From Bolinopsis microptera (Eukaryota; Ctenophora; Tentaculata; Lobata; Bolinopsidae), in the NCBI RefSeq assembly GCF_026151205.1, contig NC_087073.1, forward strand, positions 14,777,837 to 14,837,836: a stretch of 60,000 nucleotides of DNA. The letters run 5' to 3'. A program made the translations under genes and the position numbers. Positions 45,290-55,700 of the stretch are shown here, in pieces. Within the stretch, counting starts at the first letter, position 1. Each line of letters starts with the position of its first letter. The notes beneath the pieces are model-generated. The model saw only the letters and a list, made by a program, of their open reading frames with translations, had not been told where the DNA came from and made no database searches.

Positions 45290-48072
45290 TTGTTTTTAAA
45301 TCTGTAACGTTAATAATTTAATGTATTCGATTTTTGGGTTAGATAACACTAAACAGAACTTAAAAATAGCTCAAGCAGTCAAATTCGAGCGGAGACTCTT
45401 TCGTCTGGTCGCTGTGGGTATATCTTTTGACTGTAGTTTTGAAGCTGTGTTCAACCAGCACACTGAAATAATAAGTTCTGGTTAGTAAAGCAGTTAGTTA
45501 CACTAGATCACATATATTAACTGTTTACTTTAGTAAGTACGTAACTCGAACATGTGTATGTTAACAAATGTTGAAAAGAGAGTGAGAAGAGAAGATTTGA
45601 CACGACAGGTTTGAATATTTTAATGAGAGATGAATTTTTAGACCTAGCTTAACTTAGAATTTCTTTCCGATAAGTTTAAATACAGTTTCTTAACGTAGAA
45701 CTCGACATGAATTTGTGTATCTTAGTGATACTAGAGATCTTTTATCACCGGTATGGGACGGGAAGTTAATTTTAACACGTGTACTCTTTTCGGAATATTC
45801 TATAAAGCTGTAATACACAGCAAGATATCTCTTAAAACAGGCAGTCATTTTACACTGCAGCGAGTTTTACCGCTCTTTTTACGTGTAAAACAAGAGATAT
45901 AATGCAAATGTGTCACGTGCTAACTCCTTTTATGGAATAACTAGTAACCGTATTTTTTAACAAGGGTTTTTAGAGATAAAATTTTCTTGCGCCAGAAGGG
46001 TTTAAAGTTAAAGAAAGTTGAATTTTTTTTGGGGCACGAGCGTTTGCGCTGAGCCGCGCATGGATTTAAGGATATTAATTTTAACGTGTTTTTTGATATT
46101 TTGCGGGCATTTTAAAGACGTGGCGGAGTGTTGGGAAAGAAAAGAAAAGAAAAGAAAGAAAAGACAAAGGGTGGAATGTCGATTATTAACCGATCTTTCT
46201 ATAAGCATGTAAATACAGCTGATGTAAATAAGAAGAAGACAACAACAACCGGCTCGGGACCTACTAACAACCACGAGAGTGTCTGACTTGAAGCCGGTAA
46301 GTGTTTGTATGTTAGTTGTTGTCTTTCCCGTATTACATTGTGATCTGTTTTACTTTACTAGATCTTGATTGTGTATACTTCCTGAGAGGATGTTACTTAC
46401 GGTGTTTTAAGTGCCTTATTACCCCAGGTTGTTTTGTGTGGATGCTAGCGTAGCAGTCCAGTGAAGTTAGATTGAGGATATAGTTCTAGAGGGAACAGCT
46501 CTGAGAGAGCAGACAAGTATAGCAACCTGAGTGGACCTGAGTAAGCTCTGAGAGAGCAGTCACCAGCACAGCACAAGTAAGATCAAGAGGGACGGTATAG
46601 CTGAGAGAGCTATTACTAGTAAAGAGTGGATCAAGGAACTTTCCCAAAAGCACAAGTTAAATTATTAGTAGATAATATTTATTGAAGTGATTTGGATATT
46701 GAACACAGATCACTCAGCGTAATAACCATACACACTCATATCACTGATCAACCAAGTACATCTGAGAGTTATAACTAGAGAGTTATCTAACCTTGTTATA
46801 AATCTATTTTATTACAACCCTTTATCCCACAGAGTTTGACTTGGTATTATTGATAACAATTCTCCCTATATAGCGGTATTAACAATTTTCACTTCTAGTA
46901 ATTATAACATTGTAAGGTCCCTGCTCAGTACCTTAAAAGTCATTGCATTGTTAATTGACCAATACGACTCCAACGATGTCGATTGACGGTTCCCTCTTTA
47001 CAGATTTGATTTACAGAAAAAATGGTTTGTGATGTTAATAATATATGATCCTGTCGTTGATGTTCCCAATGGAGACATTAGCTGTGGAGTTAATTTGTAG
47101 CTTTGTTGATTACTTGATGATGTTTCCTTTAGTCCCCGCACACCAGTTGACTGGTTTCAAATATATATATATATGATTTCTCAGGTGAGAAATATTAAGG
47201 ATTCTCAGGTGGTTTTGATCAGGTTGAAAGGTCCAGGTCGAGAGGAGCCAGGTATTGTTCTGGAGGAATATTATTTTGGCTTGGGTAGGACAACATAGAC
47301 CTTTCTGTGTTCAGCCGATTGGATGTCAGTAAAACAGTAAATATGAGCTGGAGGTAGAGGAGCTGGAAGAGGTATCCATATCATATCACTGTCATAGTTA
47401 GAGTTGCAGGGTAGGGGTTCCAAGAGCTACGTTAAACATACATTTGTGGAGAGTAATTGTGTAATTAGAGTCATCAAATTTCAATTTTACATACATTACC
47501 ACTGAGAGTATTTTCTAAATTATTTCTATACCATTTAATTGCATGATTTTTGTTAAAATTAGGAACACAAGTTTTAAATTTTGGAATTTATTAATAACAA
47601 TCAAAACATATCATATGGACACGTTCATAAAAAGGTGGCACTAGAGATTGATTTTTCACTGCCAAAATTGTGTGAAGCATTTTAAAATACTTGTATCTCA
47701 AGGAGTATGCTATGAAAGTTAACCAAATTTTAATATGTGGTCCAAAAAGATTCAAATGTCACATAATTAAGTCATTCATCTCTTTATATCTGTTAATTGT
47801 GCAGATATGAGCCAGAAATCACAAAATATTCATTTCTTTGATATATAAAGCGCGTTGGTTGGCTGCCTCAGTAATTGTATCACAAGTTATCTAATATCTT
47901 TTGGTATCTTGATTTTACTAAATTCATTGTCAGTTTTCTATAATCAATAGATTTTCCAGATTTGATTACATAAGGCTGACTACAGTACAGACTTTATGTG
48001 ATCCATCGACAGAGTGTGAAGGATCAATGGAGCAAGTTTTTCAGTTAATTGGGTTGACGAGAAGAAATCATT
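45290..48072. other. Anonymous DNA with short internal repeats
   Basis: No gene is supported. At about 46495-46615 the string CTGAGAGAGC recurs three times in a GC-richer stretch that superficially resembles the LTR_A layout (repeated short purine units, then an AT-rich end). No LTR pair, primer site or TG..CA boundaries could be fixed. An AT dinucleotide run lies at about 47160-47174. Confidence 0.4.
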
Positions 48073-48108
48073 TAAACTGATTTACGAATAAAACTATTTC
48101 ATAAAGAC

Positions 48109-49287
48109 ATGATACATGTTGAAGATAATGCTACCAACAAAAATGAGTGCCCTTGTGGTTCTAGTGATGACCAATCTATCTTTATCATGTGTGAAAAATG
48201 TGAACAAAAGTGGCACAATAGATGCTGCAATCTCTCTGGGCTTAACACAGCTGCTGTAGAAATGCTTGATGATTGGGAATGTCCTATGTGCTATGTTTCC
48301 CCTTACACCTTCCATCATCAACCTTCCATTAATGAATATGCTGGCCGTTCAGAATTCCATGGCAAACTCAATCAGCTAAATAATGTATGGTTTCCGTGCA
48401 GTGAAATGGTGGCCAGACCATTTTCCAGAGGTGTTAACTCAGATATTGATGAGCCAGAAGAAAAACCTCCATTTTTGGAGGTTTCAGAGGTAGGGACTTC
48501 AGAGGCTCCTCCACAAAATCCAAAATTAACTCCGAGAATATCAAATAAATTTGATGGAGAAGATCTAACCAAACAGGTCCAAATTTTACACAATTCTCCT
48601 TTAAAGACACATAGCCAGTCTTTGCCTTCCAGTTCGCATGACAGTGTAACTAATACCAAGAGACATTGTTTTGAAATCCCAACTATTTCTGACTCCTCAA
48701 AATCTATCAAGTTAGGACCTGCTTGTGAACCTTATGTGATGCATGATCCAAATGCAATCGATACTGAACTGAAAAATGAGCTTGCAAAGTTTGTGAAAGA
48801 CAAAGAAGAAGATTTCAAAATGGTCGGTGAGAAATCTCGTGTTCTTTATTATGGCATCCACTCTTATCGTAAATTTGGCTACATTTTTGAGCCAAAAGAA
48901 ATGCCAGCAGTGGTTCACAAACTGCTCAATGCATTGATTACACCCAAATGTCCACCTAAACAACACGTTAACTCATGTCTCATTACTAAGTATCAATCCG
49001 GATCCAACAATGTTGATATGCACAGGGATGATGAACCTGTAATTGATTTGGAATCATTGATTCTTACTGTTTCGATTGGAGCAACACGTACGATGACCTT
49101 TATAAGTAATGACAAGAGTAAGAGAACAGACATCTCACTGGAAGACGGTAGTCTGTTGATAACCAGTCGATATTCTCAGGACTTTTGGAAGCACGGATAT
49201 TGCACTGAGGAGAGCTCTGAGAATGAAAATATTGGCTTTTCATTTAAATTTAGGAACATAGCTCCTTATTTTATGTTGTCTTATTAA
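48109..49287 (+). CDS. PHD finger - AlkB-like 2OG-Fe(II) oxygenase, single exon
   Basis: 392 aa without introns. A stop at 48073 lies upstream, and the first ATG is at 48109. Residues 14-61 form a PHD finger (C14, C16, C28, C31, H36, C39, C58, C61; MCEKCEQKWHNRCC and WECPMC), a fold that usually reads histone tails. Residues ~100-210 are Ser/Pro-rich linker. Residues ~245-390 have the AlkB-like oxygenase layout: LITKYQSGSNNVDMHRDDEP holds the iron ligands H305-x-D307, then SIGATRTM, the distal ligand H362 in KHGY, and FSFKFR with R382 for 2-oxoglutarate. The second Arg normally six residues earlier is Gly376. Predicted role: chromatin-targeted oxidative demethylation of nucleic acid or protein (inference). 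It could also be a protein carried by a retrotransposon. Lack of introns next to a gene with over 20 introns suggests a retro-copy or mobile origin. Confidence 0.85.
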   Translation: MIHVEDNATNKNECPCGSSDDQSIFIMCEKCEQKWHNRCCNLSGLNTAAVEMLDDWECPMCYVSPYTFHHQPSINEYAGRSEFHGKLNQLNNVWFPCSEMVARPFSRGVNSDIDEPEEKPPFLEVSEVGTSEAPPQNPKLTPRISNKFDGEDLTKQVQILHNSPLKTHSQSLPSSSHDSVTNTKRHCFEIPTISDSSKSIKLGPACEPYVMHDPNAIDTELKNELAKFVKDKEEDFKMVGEKSRVLYYGIHSYRKFGYIFEPKEMPAVVHKLLNALITPKCPPKQHVNSCLITKYQSGSNNVDMHRDDEPVIDLESLILTVSIGATRTMTFISNDKSKRTDISLEDGSLLITSRYSQDFWKHGYCTEESSENENIGFSFKFRNIAPYFMLSY

Positions 49288-49798
49288 GACACTGCACTTG
49301 TTAAATATGTGAAACTATATAATCATGAAATATGCTATTCTTTTAATCACAACCATAGTCAAGACTTCCTATGCATTCTTTGAATTGACTTCTCTTGTAT
49401 GTTTAATGCTTGAATAGCATTCAGACTTTTCATTATTAGAGCAAGTTAGTATGCTTTTATATTTTATTATCTACACATGATTCAGCATTGAATTAAAGTC
49501 TACTACATAATACAGCATTTGGATAATCAAACATGTTTACATAAATCTCTGCTGATCTTTAGTTCTGAAACTAGCTGTTGTATGATTTGAAGCATGGAAC
49601 AACTTTTAAAGCTTCAGTGATACTGCTCTTTTCATAAAATCCTAATATCTTTCACTGCTTGATCAAACATTCGAACTTGAATGGCTGAATCCTTTTTTTT
49701 TCTAAAGCAGATCATTAAATTTCCTTTCTAATTTTGTATTATAATTTAACACAATTTTAATTATTCACAACTTGTAATCCTCACAATGTTGCGTAGGA
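49288..49798. other. Intergenic spacer, possible shared 3'/5' regions
   Basis: About 500 bp separates the PHD-AlkB stop from the first EFCAB5-like ATG on the same strand. AT-rich, with a candidate AATTAAAG signal near 49491. No other gene is seen. Confidence 0.5.
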
Positions 49799-52700
49799 AT
49801 GGCAGCTATCCCTGATCAGAGGGACAGTAGTCCTGGAGGGGAGCTCCTGAACGCCCTCTCTCCGTCGCGCATCCTTCCTAACCACGTCATTGCTGTGAGG
49901 CGCTGGCGCAGAATCAATGAGAAGAACATCAACAACAAAATAAGGAGGAATATCAGAGATAAACGAGCGATAGTGCTTGAAGGCAGAGATATAAACTTCA
50001 AAAGGAACAAGAAGATTCCTCTGGATATCTTGACAAAGGATTGGCTGGAAAACATTGGTAATATTCAGTTTGACCATTACTTTCATCATTACTTGTAACC
50101 ATCCAGCCCCTATCATTCTTCGTTTAACTTTCATAATACCAAAACCTTGTAATTACATATATATTATATATGTTAAATGTATGGTACCCTTAAAACTTTA
50201 GATACTGTCTATAATCATATCATATTTTATTGAATTTTATAATAATACATATTTGATTTTATCATTACGGAATTGTTTTCCTTCAGGTGGCACCGACGAA
50301 CTTAGAGTGTATCTTATAGACAACTGCCTTCCTTCCCTTGTATTGGGACTTGAATCACTTCTTGAAGAAGTTTGATATTTTTATAATCACTTTAGAGTTT
50401 AAACTTTAAGGAAGTTCTAATTCTATCGATTTTTATGTACATTTCGTACATTATTGCTGGAATCATGTACGGTACGTGTAAACATCACGTGTCTAATATC
50501 ACGTGACTATCAGGTGGGAAAAGCCAAAGACAACTTCAACCCTCTGAACTATCTGGCCCAACATCTGATGAGGAATAATCCTCGCTACAATCATCTCATC
50601 AAGAACAGCCCTTACATGAAAGGGTTGAATGAGGTTTATTTCTAGAAAATATGATTTCTTATCATGTGTGTTATTGTTTAAAAGTTCAGATAATATCTGA
50701 AAAATATTATATGGCTTGATTCTTTTGAGGGTTTAAACGTGAATATTTAATTTAAGAAATAAGTTCTCAGATAAACGTCTTTACTTGACTTTAAATATAA
50801 TTTGATGCAGGTAAAAACAGAATTGCGGCAACTAGTTGCCAAGCTTCGTCACAGCAAGTCCGCTAAGATAACTTCCGATGCGCGCAAGAGGCGTTACCAG
50901 CGCCAGACAAAGGAGGCGCTGGAACCTGCTGAGATGGACAGAAGAACCGAGATCACTGCTAAATCTTTCCAGAAATGGAGCTTTGGAGACGAAACTATTC
51001 CTCAATATAAAGTACTAGATCAGTCACATCTATTATTACTTTTTGGAAGCTTAAAATTTGTTTATTATTTATGTTGGGTTTAACTTTTGTTTGACTCACC
51101 GCTGATTGTGGGCACATTACAAGCGATTGAAATCTCCAGTTTTGAATTAAGATCGATCATGGAGCAATTCTTGATTAACCATCTACGCTCATGTACATTT
51201 TTCAACATTAATTTTCTAGCGTAAACTTGTGCTTCATAAATTTCAAACAAATTTAAAAAGCGAGCTTGATGAGCAGAATTAACAAGCATGTTAACATGCC
51301 TGGTTAAGCTGCAGACAAATTTTGGGTTATCAGAACATTGAATCACCACCCGTTCTCACTTACTATTTTTAATTATTACTTACTATGTTGCTATTTTTGT
51401 ACCAGAATAACTCATATTTCAATGAATGTTTATCACCGATCTATAAAACTCTCTTTGTACTCTCTTTGTACATCACATTTACAGTTGTTATATATAACAA
51501 CTGTAAATGTATATAATCACGTTACTTTCCATTTCACAACATTACAAAGATTTAACAACACTATTCTCTACTTGCTAACTTTCAACTGTTTTCACCAGAT
51601 TCAACGTGCTCTGAGATCGTTTATGGAGGAGAAAGTGCCCAAGTTCAACGAAGAAATGCGCGAAGGTACATCTAACATCAGTCCTTCATTTCAATGTCCA
51701 TTGTTTGTTGGCATGCTTATGATATGTGTCACGAATCACGACACGAATTCACTTAAGTACTATAAATAAACTAAAATCTTGTAGATTAAGTAAAAAAACA
51801 CGTCTTGAAGATAAGCACGGATTATAATAATCCCATTGAAACATGTACGGATTGTAGCAGCATGCATGCTTTAGCAAGCTAAACCAAGCAAGCCAGAGGT
51901 CCTTCCCCACACATATGGAATCAATATGATTAGTGTCACAGTGTCACACAGGCCACAGTACACTACATGTACACATCATATTAAACATGTTTAACAGATC
52001 CATGTCTAGTCAACTCAGAGGCTTCAAGCCTGGCCAGTCAACAGAATAATTAGTCATGGTAAGAGTACACGCTGTCATACTACATATATGTTATGTATTA
52101 TATGTGTATTATTATATGTGTGGTATAGAGTGAAGCCGTTTAAGCTCCTCTCAGAAAGAGAGAACAGAGTGTAATGCTGGCGAGTGGCGAGTTTGCCATT
52201 AGTTACGTGTAATACTGGCGAGTGGCGAGTGCTGTAATCACTATATTACAGTACACAAATACCTCTTCTGTAATTCTCTTATCGTTGCAGTGTGTAAGTA
52301 CATACAACCAGTACCACTAGACGACAGGAAGGACGCTATTTCATGTCAGCAGTACTGTAAATACGTCATGGACCGCACTGAAGGATGGCCTATTGGAGCG
52401 TTTGGAGCGCTAATGCAGCACATTGAGGCGTGCGCTAAAGCTGTACCTGTGGGGGATCAGCGCCAACGATTACAGTTAGTTTGTTGCAGTGCGGAAGGGG
52501 GGTTTCTCCTAAGATTGTCTTCTATATTCTTTTATGTTATTTTCTGAAAAATGTTTCAAGATGTTCGTCATAGTTGGACTTATCCGTCAATCTTACTTAT
52601 TTACTGGATTTTATTTTGAAGTTCAATTTTTCAGACACGCATTAACATCACTCTTCCGTTCAATCGATAAAGAACAGGTTCGTTTTCCTTCATACATCTT

Positions 52701-55700
52701 GCTGTGAGACGTGACAACTATCTTGCATAGAGACAGCTTATAATATGAAACAGACGTTGCGAACTTAACTACATTGCTTGCAGTTATCATAATTATAAGT
52801 GTTAATAATAATGATAATATTGAACTTTCAGGAGAATCAGCTGAATAGAGCACACATTTTAACATTGATCAAGGAGTTCTACGGCAACATACCTATCAAC
52901 ATGAAGAAATACATAACCAACCCACTCGACTGTAAGCATTTTGGTGGAACTTTTATAGCTTTTCATCGCTAAAATACTACACTTAAGGTGATTGATCTAC
53001 TAACTGAGCAATTACCTATCCAACTCTAAACTTAACTTCAGGGTCAGATAAGGACACAGTGTACAGCCCCACTCCCACGCCCAGTGTAATGACTACACCC
53101 TTCTGTGGCAGCGCATCTATCCCGGTCTACTCAGAGACTCCAATAACCATCGACACTCCGGCAGTCGATGAACCAATGGCAGCCCAAGAATTGGTTAGTT
53201 ATTAGATTAAATAAAGTACTCGCAGGTTATTGAGACTGTCGACAGTATAATAAGTTAAGACACTACACTTGTCTTGGCAACAGCGTGTTTATGGCCCGCG
53301 CGGCTCAAGCTACTGCTAGTTTGTATCAGTTTGTGTCATGCTAGAAGTGTAGCTTGTAGCAGTGAGTGTGTTTTAAAAGTCGCGCGCGCGCGCGTGGTGA
53401 GTTCTAAATTTTTGTCACAATATGAAATTTGAGAACGATTTATCTCAGCTTTACACAGTAGCTAGGACGTAGTTCTTGAATTTCTGGATCATCCCAACCT
53501 CTAAAATATACTTCACCGGCCTGTCAACTTTTTGTTCGATAAAATTCTAAGAGTCTGTATTCACTTTTCGTTTTACAGACTACGGAACCTTCATCTCCAG
53601 AGAAAACTGTCCGGTTACCTCCAGAGGACGATGGTGAGCAAATTATTTCAAAAAATTGTTAACTTTTGATTTTGAATAGAATTTAACATTTGGGTAATTG
53701 GAACATGAGTTATCATACTGACGGTAAGAACACAACTAATGTTTCACATCTTCGCTGGTCTTCAGTAAATATATGTATATTACACATACTTCCTCAATCA
53801 TTTTACCTAAATTTCCTCCCCCATTCTCTCACAGCACAAACATCACCCACTCCGACTGTCCACATTGTTCACACCACAGTCGAAAATACCGAACATGATG
53901 ATTTAGAAGCACCCAATAAGAAAATGTCTGCTAGGAAATCGATATTTTCGTTACAGTCAGAAACCAGCATTGGTGATGATTTTGTTCCCGTCACATCAGT
54001 CATCCACATCAATAGTCCATCTTCCGACGAATCACCATCCGTCAAATCACCTACTGACGAATCACCTTCCGACGAACCTTGGATAACTGAAATCAGTTGA
54101 GTCCAATATAACATCTTGCCAATAATCAACTCACACTTCTCATCTTCAACTTATCTTCATACTTTTCACCATTTGATCATTTTCATCACGTACATAGTAA
54201 CTCACTGCGTAGTAAAGAACATAACTGCGGAATAATTCACTAATTAATATTCCTAGATGACGAAGAAGAGGTTCAACTACTGAAACATGACATAGAACTA
54301 ATCGGAGAAGAGATCCCCTCCCACTTAACTCAACCCAGAGACCAAGAAATAGATACCAAGATTAACCTCGAGGAGTTCATCTACGTCACTGAGCGGCTTC
54401 TGGGCGAGGACCCTCATCCGTTAGTTTGATCCTTAGTAAATGTTTAACATATCTGTGTAGTTCCTAAAGCTGAATGGAGTTGTTTAACATTGATGAGAAG
54501 TGTTACTGTTAGGTATGGAAATTATAGTTGTGTGTAGTCAGTGTAGCTTACGTTGCAATTATCGAGCTCTCTTATCTTTTGTAAATTGCGATAAGTTCAG
54601 TTTGCTGCTACCGTGTAGTTAGCCTTTGCGTGTGTACTTGTACATTCCTATACAAGTACATTATGGAGGATGATCGTAAGGTGACCCAATCTCTGGACCA
54701 AATTCAAGGATTCGAGTATGATGAACAGACAAAATTGAAGGACAGTGTTACTAAGTGGTTCAATACGCTGGGAAAAGAACTGAAAATCGACGACAGAGAT
54801 ATTTGTGGAGATATGGACAGAGAAATATTTATGGCTCCAACTGTCTATAAAAAGCATCTGGCACTTCGGCTTGTGGAAGCAATAGACCTCGTTCAACGGC
54901 ATGAATGCCAGATGGCTAAAATGGAGGAGATCATATATTTCTTGAAGACGGAAGCGTTAGAAGACAAGGATAAGTTGATCAGGCTGCAGGGCCAGCTGCT
55001 TGTGCAGAAGGACAAAGAACTGGAGTTGTTTAAGACGTCGGTTAAGAAGACAGTGCAAACAACGGTGGAGTCAGGGATTAAGAGCTACAGTGCAGCTGTA
55101 CAACAGAACAGTGCAAGTGGTACGGTCTGCAACAGTAACATCCTGAAGAAGGTGATGAAGAGTGTGGCTGCAGAGGAGGACAGGAGCAAGAACCTGATTG
55201 TGTTTGGGTTGAAAGAAGAAGAGGGAGAACAGCTTCCAGCGCTATTAACCGCAGTTCTGGAGGAGATTGGGGAGAAACCTCACTTCGAAGCGACTAGAGT
55301 CGGCAGGAAGAGGCCAGGTAGTACGACTATCCGACCAGTAAAGATCACTGTCCCAAGCTCTACAGCGGTTCAACAGATTCTGACGAAAACAGGAAGACTG
55401 AGGCTAGTTGAGACCCACAAAAATGTATGGATCTGTCCAGATAGATCTAGCGAAGAACGAGCAACGAGGAAACATCTGGTTACCGACCTGAAGAAGAAGA
55501 GGGTTGAACAGACTCACCTCGACCACTATATCCGGTACGGGAAAGTCTGTAGCCGTGATAAGAAACCACCGTGAAGCAATTCATGTCTCTCGGACACTGA
55601 TCAGTATTTGAATGAGTATTGCGTATCTTAATAGTTTTCGGACGTTATCTGTATTTGAGAGACAATTTTATAATTTATTTATTTATAATTTATATACGAG

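What the first reader, a model, noticed from the sequence alone, without database searches (positions are those of the whole stretch)
48109..49287. Single-exon gene joining a PHD finger to an AlkB-like oxygenase
The same frame clearly shows the eight zinc ligands of a PHD finger and the HxD..H..R set of an AlkB-type Fe(II)/2-oxoglutarate oxygenase. A histone-reading module tied to an oxidative demethylase fold suggests a chromatin-targeted DNA, RNA or protein modifier. The gene has no introns, while its neighbour has at least 20. It sits among LINE relics, so it may have arrived by retroposition or as a retroelement cargo gene. I do not know a named, characterised animal protein with this architecture, though uncharacterised homologues may exist.
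Basis: partly seen in the sequence, partly recalled or inferred. Interest (0 to 1): 0.75.

Follow-up and report, generated by a model that had tools for sequence, protein, structure and literature searches.

The report
Lone jumping-gene-derived PHD–AlkB gene
A single-copy gene pairing a PHD finger with an AlkB-type enzyme fold closely resembles the first protein of jumping genes (LINEs) found in many copies in this animal's genome; it looks like a piece of such an element kept intact, possibly put to use by the host, with one key enzyme residue lost.

Summary
The ORF at 48109-49287 (392 aa) is real: a PHD finger followed by an AlkB-like Fe(II)/2OG oxygenase domain. It is not isolated. The genome search listed 151 AlkB-domain matches, a lower bound. 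Of nine loci first examined, eight are LINE-like, with ORF1 of order PHD–AlkB–SGNH esterase or AlkB–SGNH, and one is a Helitron-like frame with SGNH and AlkB. The window protein groups with one ORF1 family (49% identical over AlkB). No close DNA copy was found: the best other matches are 11 places at 67-68% over 229 bp. The ORF1 N-terminus, SGNH and ORF2 were not detected beside it. The frame is intact and neutrality over the whole branch is rejected, which fits a domesticated LINE ORF1 but does not prove it. Zinc and iron ligands are kept, but the first R of RxxxxxR, reported to coordinate 2OG, is G here and R in 18 of 18 aligned mobile relatives, so ordinary demethylase activity is doubtful. 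Expression and orthologues could not be tested.

The parts
48109..49287 (+). Single-exon ORF, 392 aa, PHD-linker-AlkB; one copy found in the genome
48148..48291 (+). PHD finger (aa 14-61), eight zinc ligands kept
48292..48702 (+). Linker (about aa 62-198); aa 61-202 match only themselves in the genome at E <= 1; the coiled-coil-like stretch of the LINE ORF1s is not recognisable by eye
   Evidence: comparison by eye
48703..49272 (+). AlkB-like 2OG-Fe(II) oxygenase domain (aa 199-388)
49021..49029 (+). HxD iron ligands H305 and D307
   Evidence: bases
49192..49194 (+). Third iron ligand H362
   Evidence: bases
49234..49254 (+). RxxxxxR position: G376 in place of the first R, K380 in place of T, R382 kept
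47613..47838 (.). About 226-bp high-copy repeat upstream of the ORF (39 further matches listed at 96-100% identity, a lower bound); not part of the gene

Best explanation
The ORF is a single-copy, host-resident derivative of the ORF1 protein of a LINE retrotransposon (closest to the '707-aa' PHD-AlkB-SGNH family of this genome). It is cut down to PHD plus AlkB and has been kept open by selection, i.e. a domesticated LINE ORF1. Shown: homology to LINE ORF1; no close second copy found; ORF1 N-terminus, SGNH and ORF2 not detected beside it; intact frame; neutrality of the whole branch rejected. Inferred: that it is expressed and serves the host, and the direction element to host. Likely mechanism (inferred): the PHD finger docks on a histone tail or another partner and the AlkB fold binds nucleic acid and Fe(II). 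Because the first R of RxxxxxR is lost, catalysis is probably weakened, absent or rewired (perhaps through K380, two residues from R382 on what should be the same strand; no model supports this), so it would act mainly as a binding or antagonist protein toward nucleic acid or its mobile relatives rather than as an ordinary demethylase.
For: Homology to LINE ORF1 over PHD and AlkB. Relatives sit in ORF1 beside endonuclease-reverse transcriptase ORF2. Trees join it with the 707-aa family (FastTree 0.98; SH-aLRT/UFBoot 95.5/98). DNA of 47845-49795, with all 12 candidates scored, matches itself and 11 places at 67-68% over 229 bp; by position 7 of the 11 lie in frames listed at 49-54% protein identity that I had fetched or that carry the 707-type frame, and the others have the same protein identities. 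Linker found once, degenerate pattern once. No SGNH, ORF1 N-terminus or ORF2 trace detected beside it. Foreground omega = 1 against free omega: 2 delta lnL about 17.5. Best neutral tail is 0 and about 0.1 substitution per site costs 1.9 lnL. A neutral copy diverged 0.05 per site keeps a stop-free frame with P 0.07, and at 0.03 with an assumed indel rate P 0.02; a copy that young should have near-identical siblings and none were found. GC3 is 0.33, below all 15 LINE ORF1 frames measured (0.36-0.49).
Against: No RNA evidence and no orthologue. Selection after immobilisation cannot be separated from selection while it was a mobile ORF1, except through the intact frame and missing siblings. Synonymous change is saturated: the free omega ran to the branch bound; the neutral-tail profile re-optimised three branch lengths only, with kappa, omega and tree fixed. 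Four of 17 columns invariant in 14 other families are changed here (Y255K, P303D, R376G, T380K), against 0-2 in any other family, which could mean relaxed constraint. The composition argument is weak: two LINE ORF2 frames and the Helitron-like frame have GC3 0.34-0.39 and one exon-like host frame has 0.58. Gaps or withheld stretches could hide a sibling.
Confidence: 0.6

Rival explanations
1. It is a recently dead, low-copy LINE ORF1 remnant that happens still to be open; no host function.
For: Clear LINE ORF1 relationship; loss of residues otherwise invariant in the sample; a neutral tail of up to about 0.1 per site is not rejected by the codon fit alone.
Against: No close sibling at DNA level; no ORF2 or 3' part detected although LINE copies are as a rule 3'-anchored (general knowledge; L010 and L012 look like 5'-truncated copies); an open 392-codon frame is unlikely beyond a few percent neutral divergence.
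Confidence: 0.22
2. It is an old host PHD-AlkB gene from which the LINEs captured their ORF1 domains (host to element).
For: Single copy, compact, frame ends at the domain edges.
Against: It groups with one particular LINE family to the exclusion of the other sampled sequences. But the trees are unrooted, and the next node is weak (0.55; 58.7/74), so this is not excluded.
Confidence: 0.1
3. It is an active, chromatin-targeted 2OG nucleic-acid demethylase.
For: HxD and H iron ligands and the last R kept, strong PF13532 match; an AlkB domain in an orchid Ty3/Gypsy element demethylates RNA in vitro (PMC9289625, abstract passages).
Against: The first R of RxxxxxR, 2OG-coordinating in one passage of PMC544882, is G here and R in 18 of 18 aligned mobile relatives.
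Confidence: 0.12

Closest known systems
ORF1 of CR1/L2-type (Jockey superfamily) LINEs (PMC4120745, passages)
   Same: PHD finger and esterase are recorded ORF1 domains; ORF1 is followed by an endonuclease-reverse transcriptase ORF2, as in the elements here
   Different: Its main text has no occurrence of AlkB, oxygenase or 2OG. Here AlkB sits in ORF1, with PHD and an SGNH-like part in one protein in several families. The LINE clade of these elements was not determined. The window gene lacks SGNH and ORF2
L1TD1, domesticated LINE-1 ORF1 of mammals (PMC4161310, passages)
   Same: Host gene derived from a LINE ORF1
   Different: RNA-binding protein (abstract) with no catalytic fold that I know of (recalled); found in several species, which could not be tested here
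AlkB domain of orchid Ty3/Gypsy elements (PMC9289625) and of plant RNA viruses (PMC544882)
   Same: AlkB domain carried by a mobile element or virus
   Different: LTR element or virus; 'PHD' does not occur in the orchid paper's main text. The orchid domain is active in vitro, whereas the window copy lacks the first R
ALKBH2, ALKBH3 and bacterial AlkB
   Same: Nearest solved folds by sequence; iron ligands kept
   Different: ALKBH3 shows both arginines in the alignment, the window only the last; no PHD finger in these enzymes (recalled)
BPTF PHD finger
   Same: C4HC3 ligand pattern; phmmer E 3.5e-5
   Different: The residue aligned with the BPTF cage tryptophan (recalled) is K here and Q in L001, so H3K4me3 reading cannot be assumed

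Membership tests
AlkB (2OG-FeII_Oxy_2, PF13532) | Profile match over the curated cut-off | tested here: met
   62.4 bits against 31.2
AlkB (2OG-FeII_Oxy_2, PF13532) | HxD and H iron ligands | tested here: met
   H305, D307, H362
AlkB (2OG-FeII_Oxy_2, PF13532) | RxxxxxR motif, first R for 2OG | tested here: not met
   G376 and R382; 18 of 18 aligned mobile sequences have R at the first place; rule from PMC544882. So: homologous domain, not shown to be a working AlkB
AlkB (2OG-FeII_Oxy_2, PF13532) | Oxidative demethylation | not testable with these tools
   needs an assay
PHD finger (PF00628) | Eight zinc ligands C4HC3 | tested here: met
   alignment
PHD finger (PF00628) | Profile match over cut-off | tested here: inconclusive
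   22.0 bits against 24; BPTF match E 3.5e-5
Intact LINE retrotransposon | ORF2 with endonuclease and reverse transcriptase downstream | tested here: not met
   none detected beside the ORF
Intact LINE retrotransposon | Close sibling copies | tested here: not met
   none found; best other DNA matches 67-68% over 229 bp
Domesticated LINE ORF1 gene | Derived from LINE ORF1 | tested here: inconclusive
   homology and grouping shown; direction element to host inferred, trees unrooted
Domesticated LINE ORF1 gene | Frame kept by purifying selection after immobilisation | tested here: inconclusive
   neutrality of the whole branch rejected, but mobile and resident phases cannot be split
Domesticated LINE ORF1 gene | Orthologue at the same place in other species; expression | not testable with these tools
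   no related genome or RNA held

The most novel reading that the evidence does not exclude
LINEs and Helitron-like elements of this lineage use AlkB (with PHD and SGNH) as a shared counter-defence module that erases host marks on their RNA or DNA, and the host has captured one such ORF1, stripped it to PHD-AlkB and disabled its 2OG site, turning it into an antagonist of, or chromatin adaptor against, its parents.
Probability: 0.15. Interest if true: 0.85.

Novelty: new variant of a known kind. Interest (0 to 1): 0.6.

Why it matters
It points to a LINE ORF1 type that I did not find described in the papers I could search: PHD–AlkB–SGNH, in multi-copy families of what is probably a ctenophore, one of them with copies 97.6-100% identical, and AlkB also in a Helitron-like protein. 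Erasing methyl marks on nucleic acid would be a direct way for a transposon to escape control, and near-identical copies make that testable. The window gene would be one of few known host genes made from a LINE ORF1, and one whose enzyme site appears altered.

Tried and rejected
Structure: AlphaFold2 on the window protein alone gave mean pLDDT 34.4, useless, so no fold search was run.

DNA copies: only 40 of 470 candidates were scored and the upstream repeat filled the list, so its silence about the gene says little. I repeated the search without the repeat, where 12 of 12 candidates were scored.

Viral contigs: one scan with the window protein found nothing. Flank search for decayed SGNH, ORF1 N-terminus or ORF2 found nothing significant; the best ORF2 hit (E 0.003) is PHD against PHD at the gene itself. 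A tblastn hit ran about ten codons past the stop (to 49317); I judged it too weak to call an SGNH trace. Branch-specific omega as a number: rejected, because it ran to the bound. Host identity from a marker gene: not attempted. Copies of the LINE family outside this genome: not searchable with these tools.

Literature: ten searches. Those bearing on AlkB in mobile elements are 9, 13, 19, 42, 55 and 58. From titles and abstract beginnings alone, none of the papers listed reports AlkB in a LINE ORF1 or Helitron; some lists were partial (20 of 80; 25 of 465; 20 of 1,011). Only open-licence PMC papers are held, and Repbase was not available. Papers seen: passages by 'find' of PMC4120745, PMC9289625, PMC11797021, PMC544882, PMC5408684, PMC4982230, PMC4161310, PMC9246332; PMC2800194 had no hits for my terms; the L1TD1 eLife paper PMC11925450 in a search listing only.

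Full report
1. The ORF 48109-49287 encodes 392 aa. Pfam finds an AlkB-like 2OG-Fe(II) oxygenase domain (E 8.6e-17) and a PHD finger (E 1.6e-4, two bits under its cut-off). phmmer against solved chains finds ALKBH3, ALKBH2 and the BPTF PHD finger.

2. The genome changes the picture. A search of the window's own genome (264.65 Mb, 232 contigs) with PF13532 listed 151 matches, with 150 of 587 first-look candidates scored, so this is a lower bound; it includes any ordinary host ALKBH genes, which I did not sort out. With the window protein as query the gene itself is the only 100% match; the next best are 49-54% identical over all or part of AlkB. In several repeated frames PHD and AlkB matches lie in the same open frame.

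3. What the relatives are. Of nine loci taken first, eight are LINE-like and one (L005) is Helitron-like. L001, L002, L004 and L006 have ORF1 with PHD, linker, AlkB and an SGNH-like C-terminus, overlapping an ORF2; L003, L007, L008 and L009 have AlkB and SGNH without PHD. In L007 only an endonuclease-like frame was seen, by eye, in place of a full ORF2. Pfam reports RVT_1 and an endonuclease family in four of four ORF2 frames scanned (L001, L002, L003, L008; the endonuclease match of L002 is under its cut-off, and the L008 frame is cut by the locus end). L004, L006 and L009 ORF2 were not scanned; L006 and L009 are 96% and 98% identical in DNA to L002 and L003 over the parts compared, ORF2 included. 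PHD was reported, under its cut-off, in three of the six ORF1 frames scanned (L001, L002, L004). SGNH (PF13472) was reported, under its cut-off, in four of six (L003, L004, L007, L008) and not in L001 and L002, where I assign it by eye from the GDSN and GIN motifs. The L005 frame has Helitron_like_N, DUF6570 and AlkB over their cut-offs and SGNH under it. Sixteen further loci are more copies of the 707- and 750-aa families (L010-L017, L022) and ORF1 stretches of other families (L018-L021, L023-L025; too short to show ORF2). Five other copies of the 707-aa family are 97.6-100% identical in DNA to L001, so that family is young.

4. The window copy is different. It is alone. With the upstream repeat left out, DNA of 47845-49795 gives 12 matches, all 12 candidates scored: itself, and 11 places at 67-68% over 229 bp of the AlkB part; all 11 are places that the protein search had listed at 49-54% identity. 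Its linker matches only itself at E <= 1, and a degenerate pattern finds it once. The ORF1 N-terminus, SGNH and ORF2 were not detected: HMM profiles of the first two against 45.0-48.15 and 49.26-52.0 kb, ORF2 of L001 and L002 against 46-54 kb, and tblastn of eleven ORF1/ORF2 queries against the whole window, which found ORF1 homology only here. Reverse-transcriptase relics at 8.3-10.0 kb and, weakly, 44.9-45.2 kb lie on the other strand.

5. Relationship. From 19 aligned AlkB domains, a tree of 15 (L006, L008, L013, L005 left out) and one of 17 (L006, L013 left out) both join the window with the 707-aa family (0.98; 95.5/98). Identity to L001 over 190 aligned AlkB positions is 49%. The trees are unrooted and the next node is weak, so the direction (element to host) is inference.

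6. Selection. On 186 codon columns and 15 sequences a one-ratio model gives omega 0.076, lnL -8247.54; omega = 1 on the window branch gives -8254.25; freeing it gives -8245.48 but runs to the branch bound, so the value is unusable (own implementation, fixed tree, at most 60 iterations). Adding a neutral tail never improves the fit, and lnL falls by about 1.9 at 0.1 per site, with three branch lengths re-optimised and the rest fixed. Point mutation alone leaves a stop-free 392-codon frame with P 0.34, 0.07 and 0.005 at 0.02, 0.05 and 0.1 per site. A copy dead for so short a time should have close siblings; none were found. This favours retention by selection but does not prove host function. 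GC3 (0.33) is below all 15 LINE ORF1 frames measured (0.36-0.49), but LINE ORF2 and the Helitron-like frame reach 0.34-0.39, so composition adds little.

7. Catalytic site. The window keeps H305, D307, H362 and R382; position 376 is G where 18 of 18 aligned mobile sequences have R, and 380 is K where 18 of 18 have T (these 18 stand for 14 families). Over one sequence per family, the window changes 4 of 17 columns invariant in the other 14; no other family changes more than 2, two of those being gaps in the partial L005 (L017, L013, L006, L022 left out as near-duplicates). One passage of PMC544882 states that the first R of RxxxxxR coordinates 2OG; another counts it with the iron residues. In the register that phmmer gives against ALKBH3 the position is N374, also not R. 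So canonical catalysis is doubtful; relaxed constraint is the other reading.

8. Host. Twelve contig lengths were seen, 15.2-26.2 Mb, 241.7 Mb together, and C4 is at least 11.8 Mb, so about thirteen large contigs make up a 264.65-Mb genome. PMC11797021 gives Bolinopsis microptera 265 Mb and Mnemiopsis 248 Mb, with 13 chromosomes each (passages); its scaffold count for Bolinopsis (346) is not that of this assembly (232). Ctenophore is inference from size and count, not from a marker gene.

9. Known or not. PHD and esterase are recorded ORF1 domains (PMC4120745), and a LINE ORF1-derived host gene is known (L1TD1, PMC4161310). AlkB is known in an orchid Ty3/Gypsy element (PMC9289625) and in plant viruses (PMC544882). 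The literature searches named above, judged from titles and abstract beginnings, showed no AlkB in a LINE ORF1 or Helitron; the library is partial. I rate it a new variant of a known kind.

Noticed in passing
L005:2883-9500: Helitron-like 2206-aa frame (cut by the locus end) carrying SGNH, AlkB, DUF6570 and Helitron_like_N, so the SGNH and AlkB pair is shared between LINEs and a Helitron-like element.
   Followed up: partly
L003:3254-8842 against L009:1-5390: Two LINEs with ORF2 regions 98% identical in DNA but ORF1 regions only 69% identical, suggesting ORF1 exchange.
   Followed up: no
L006:1832-5320: A LINE ORF1 frame runs on upstream into what looks by eye like a Penelope-type reverse transcriptase (1163-aa frame).
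   Followed up: no
window 47613-47838: Short high-copy repeat upstream of the gene: 39 further matches listed at 96-100% identity, plus one 58-bp match at 91% to the stretch just before it (40 of 470 candidates scored).
   Followed up: no
window 54585-55571 and L007:5207-6193: Nearly identical 329-aa frames of unknown type, no Pfam match for the window one.
   Followed up: no
window 49799-50056: First exon-like frame of a + strand gene about 510 bp after the ORF stop; no Pfam match.
   Followed up: partly
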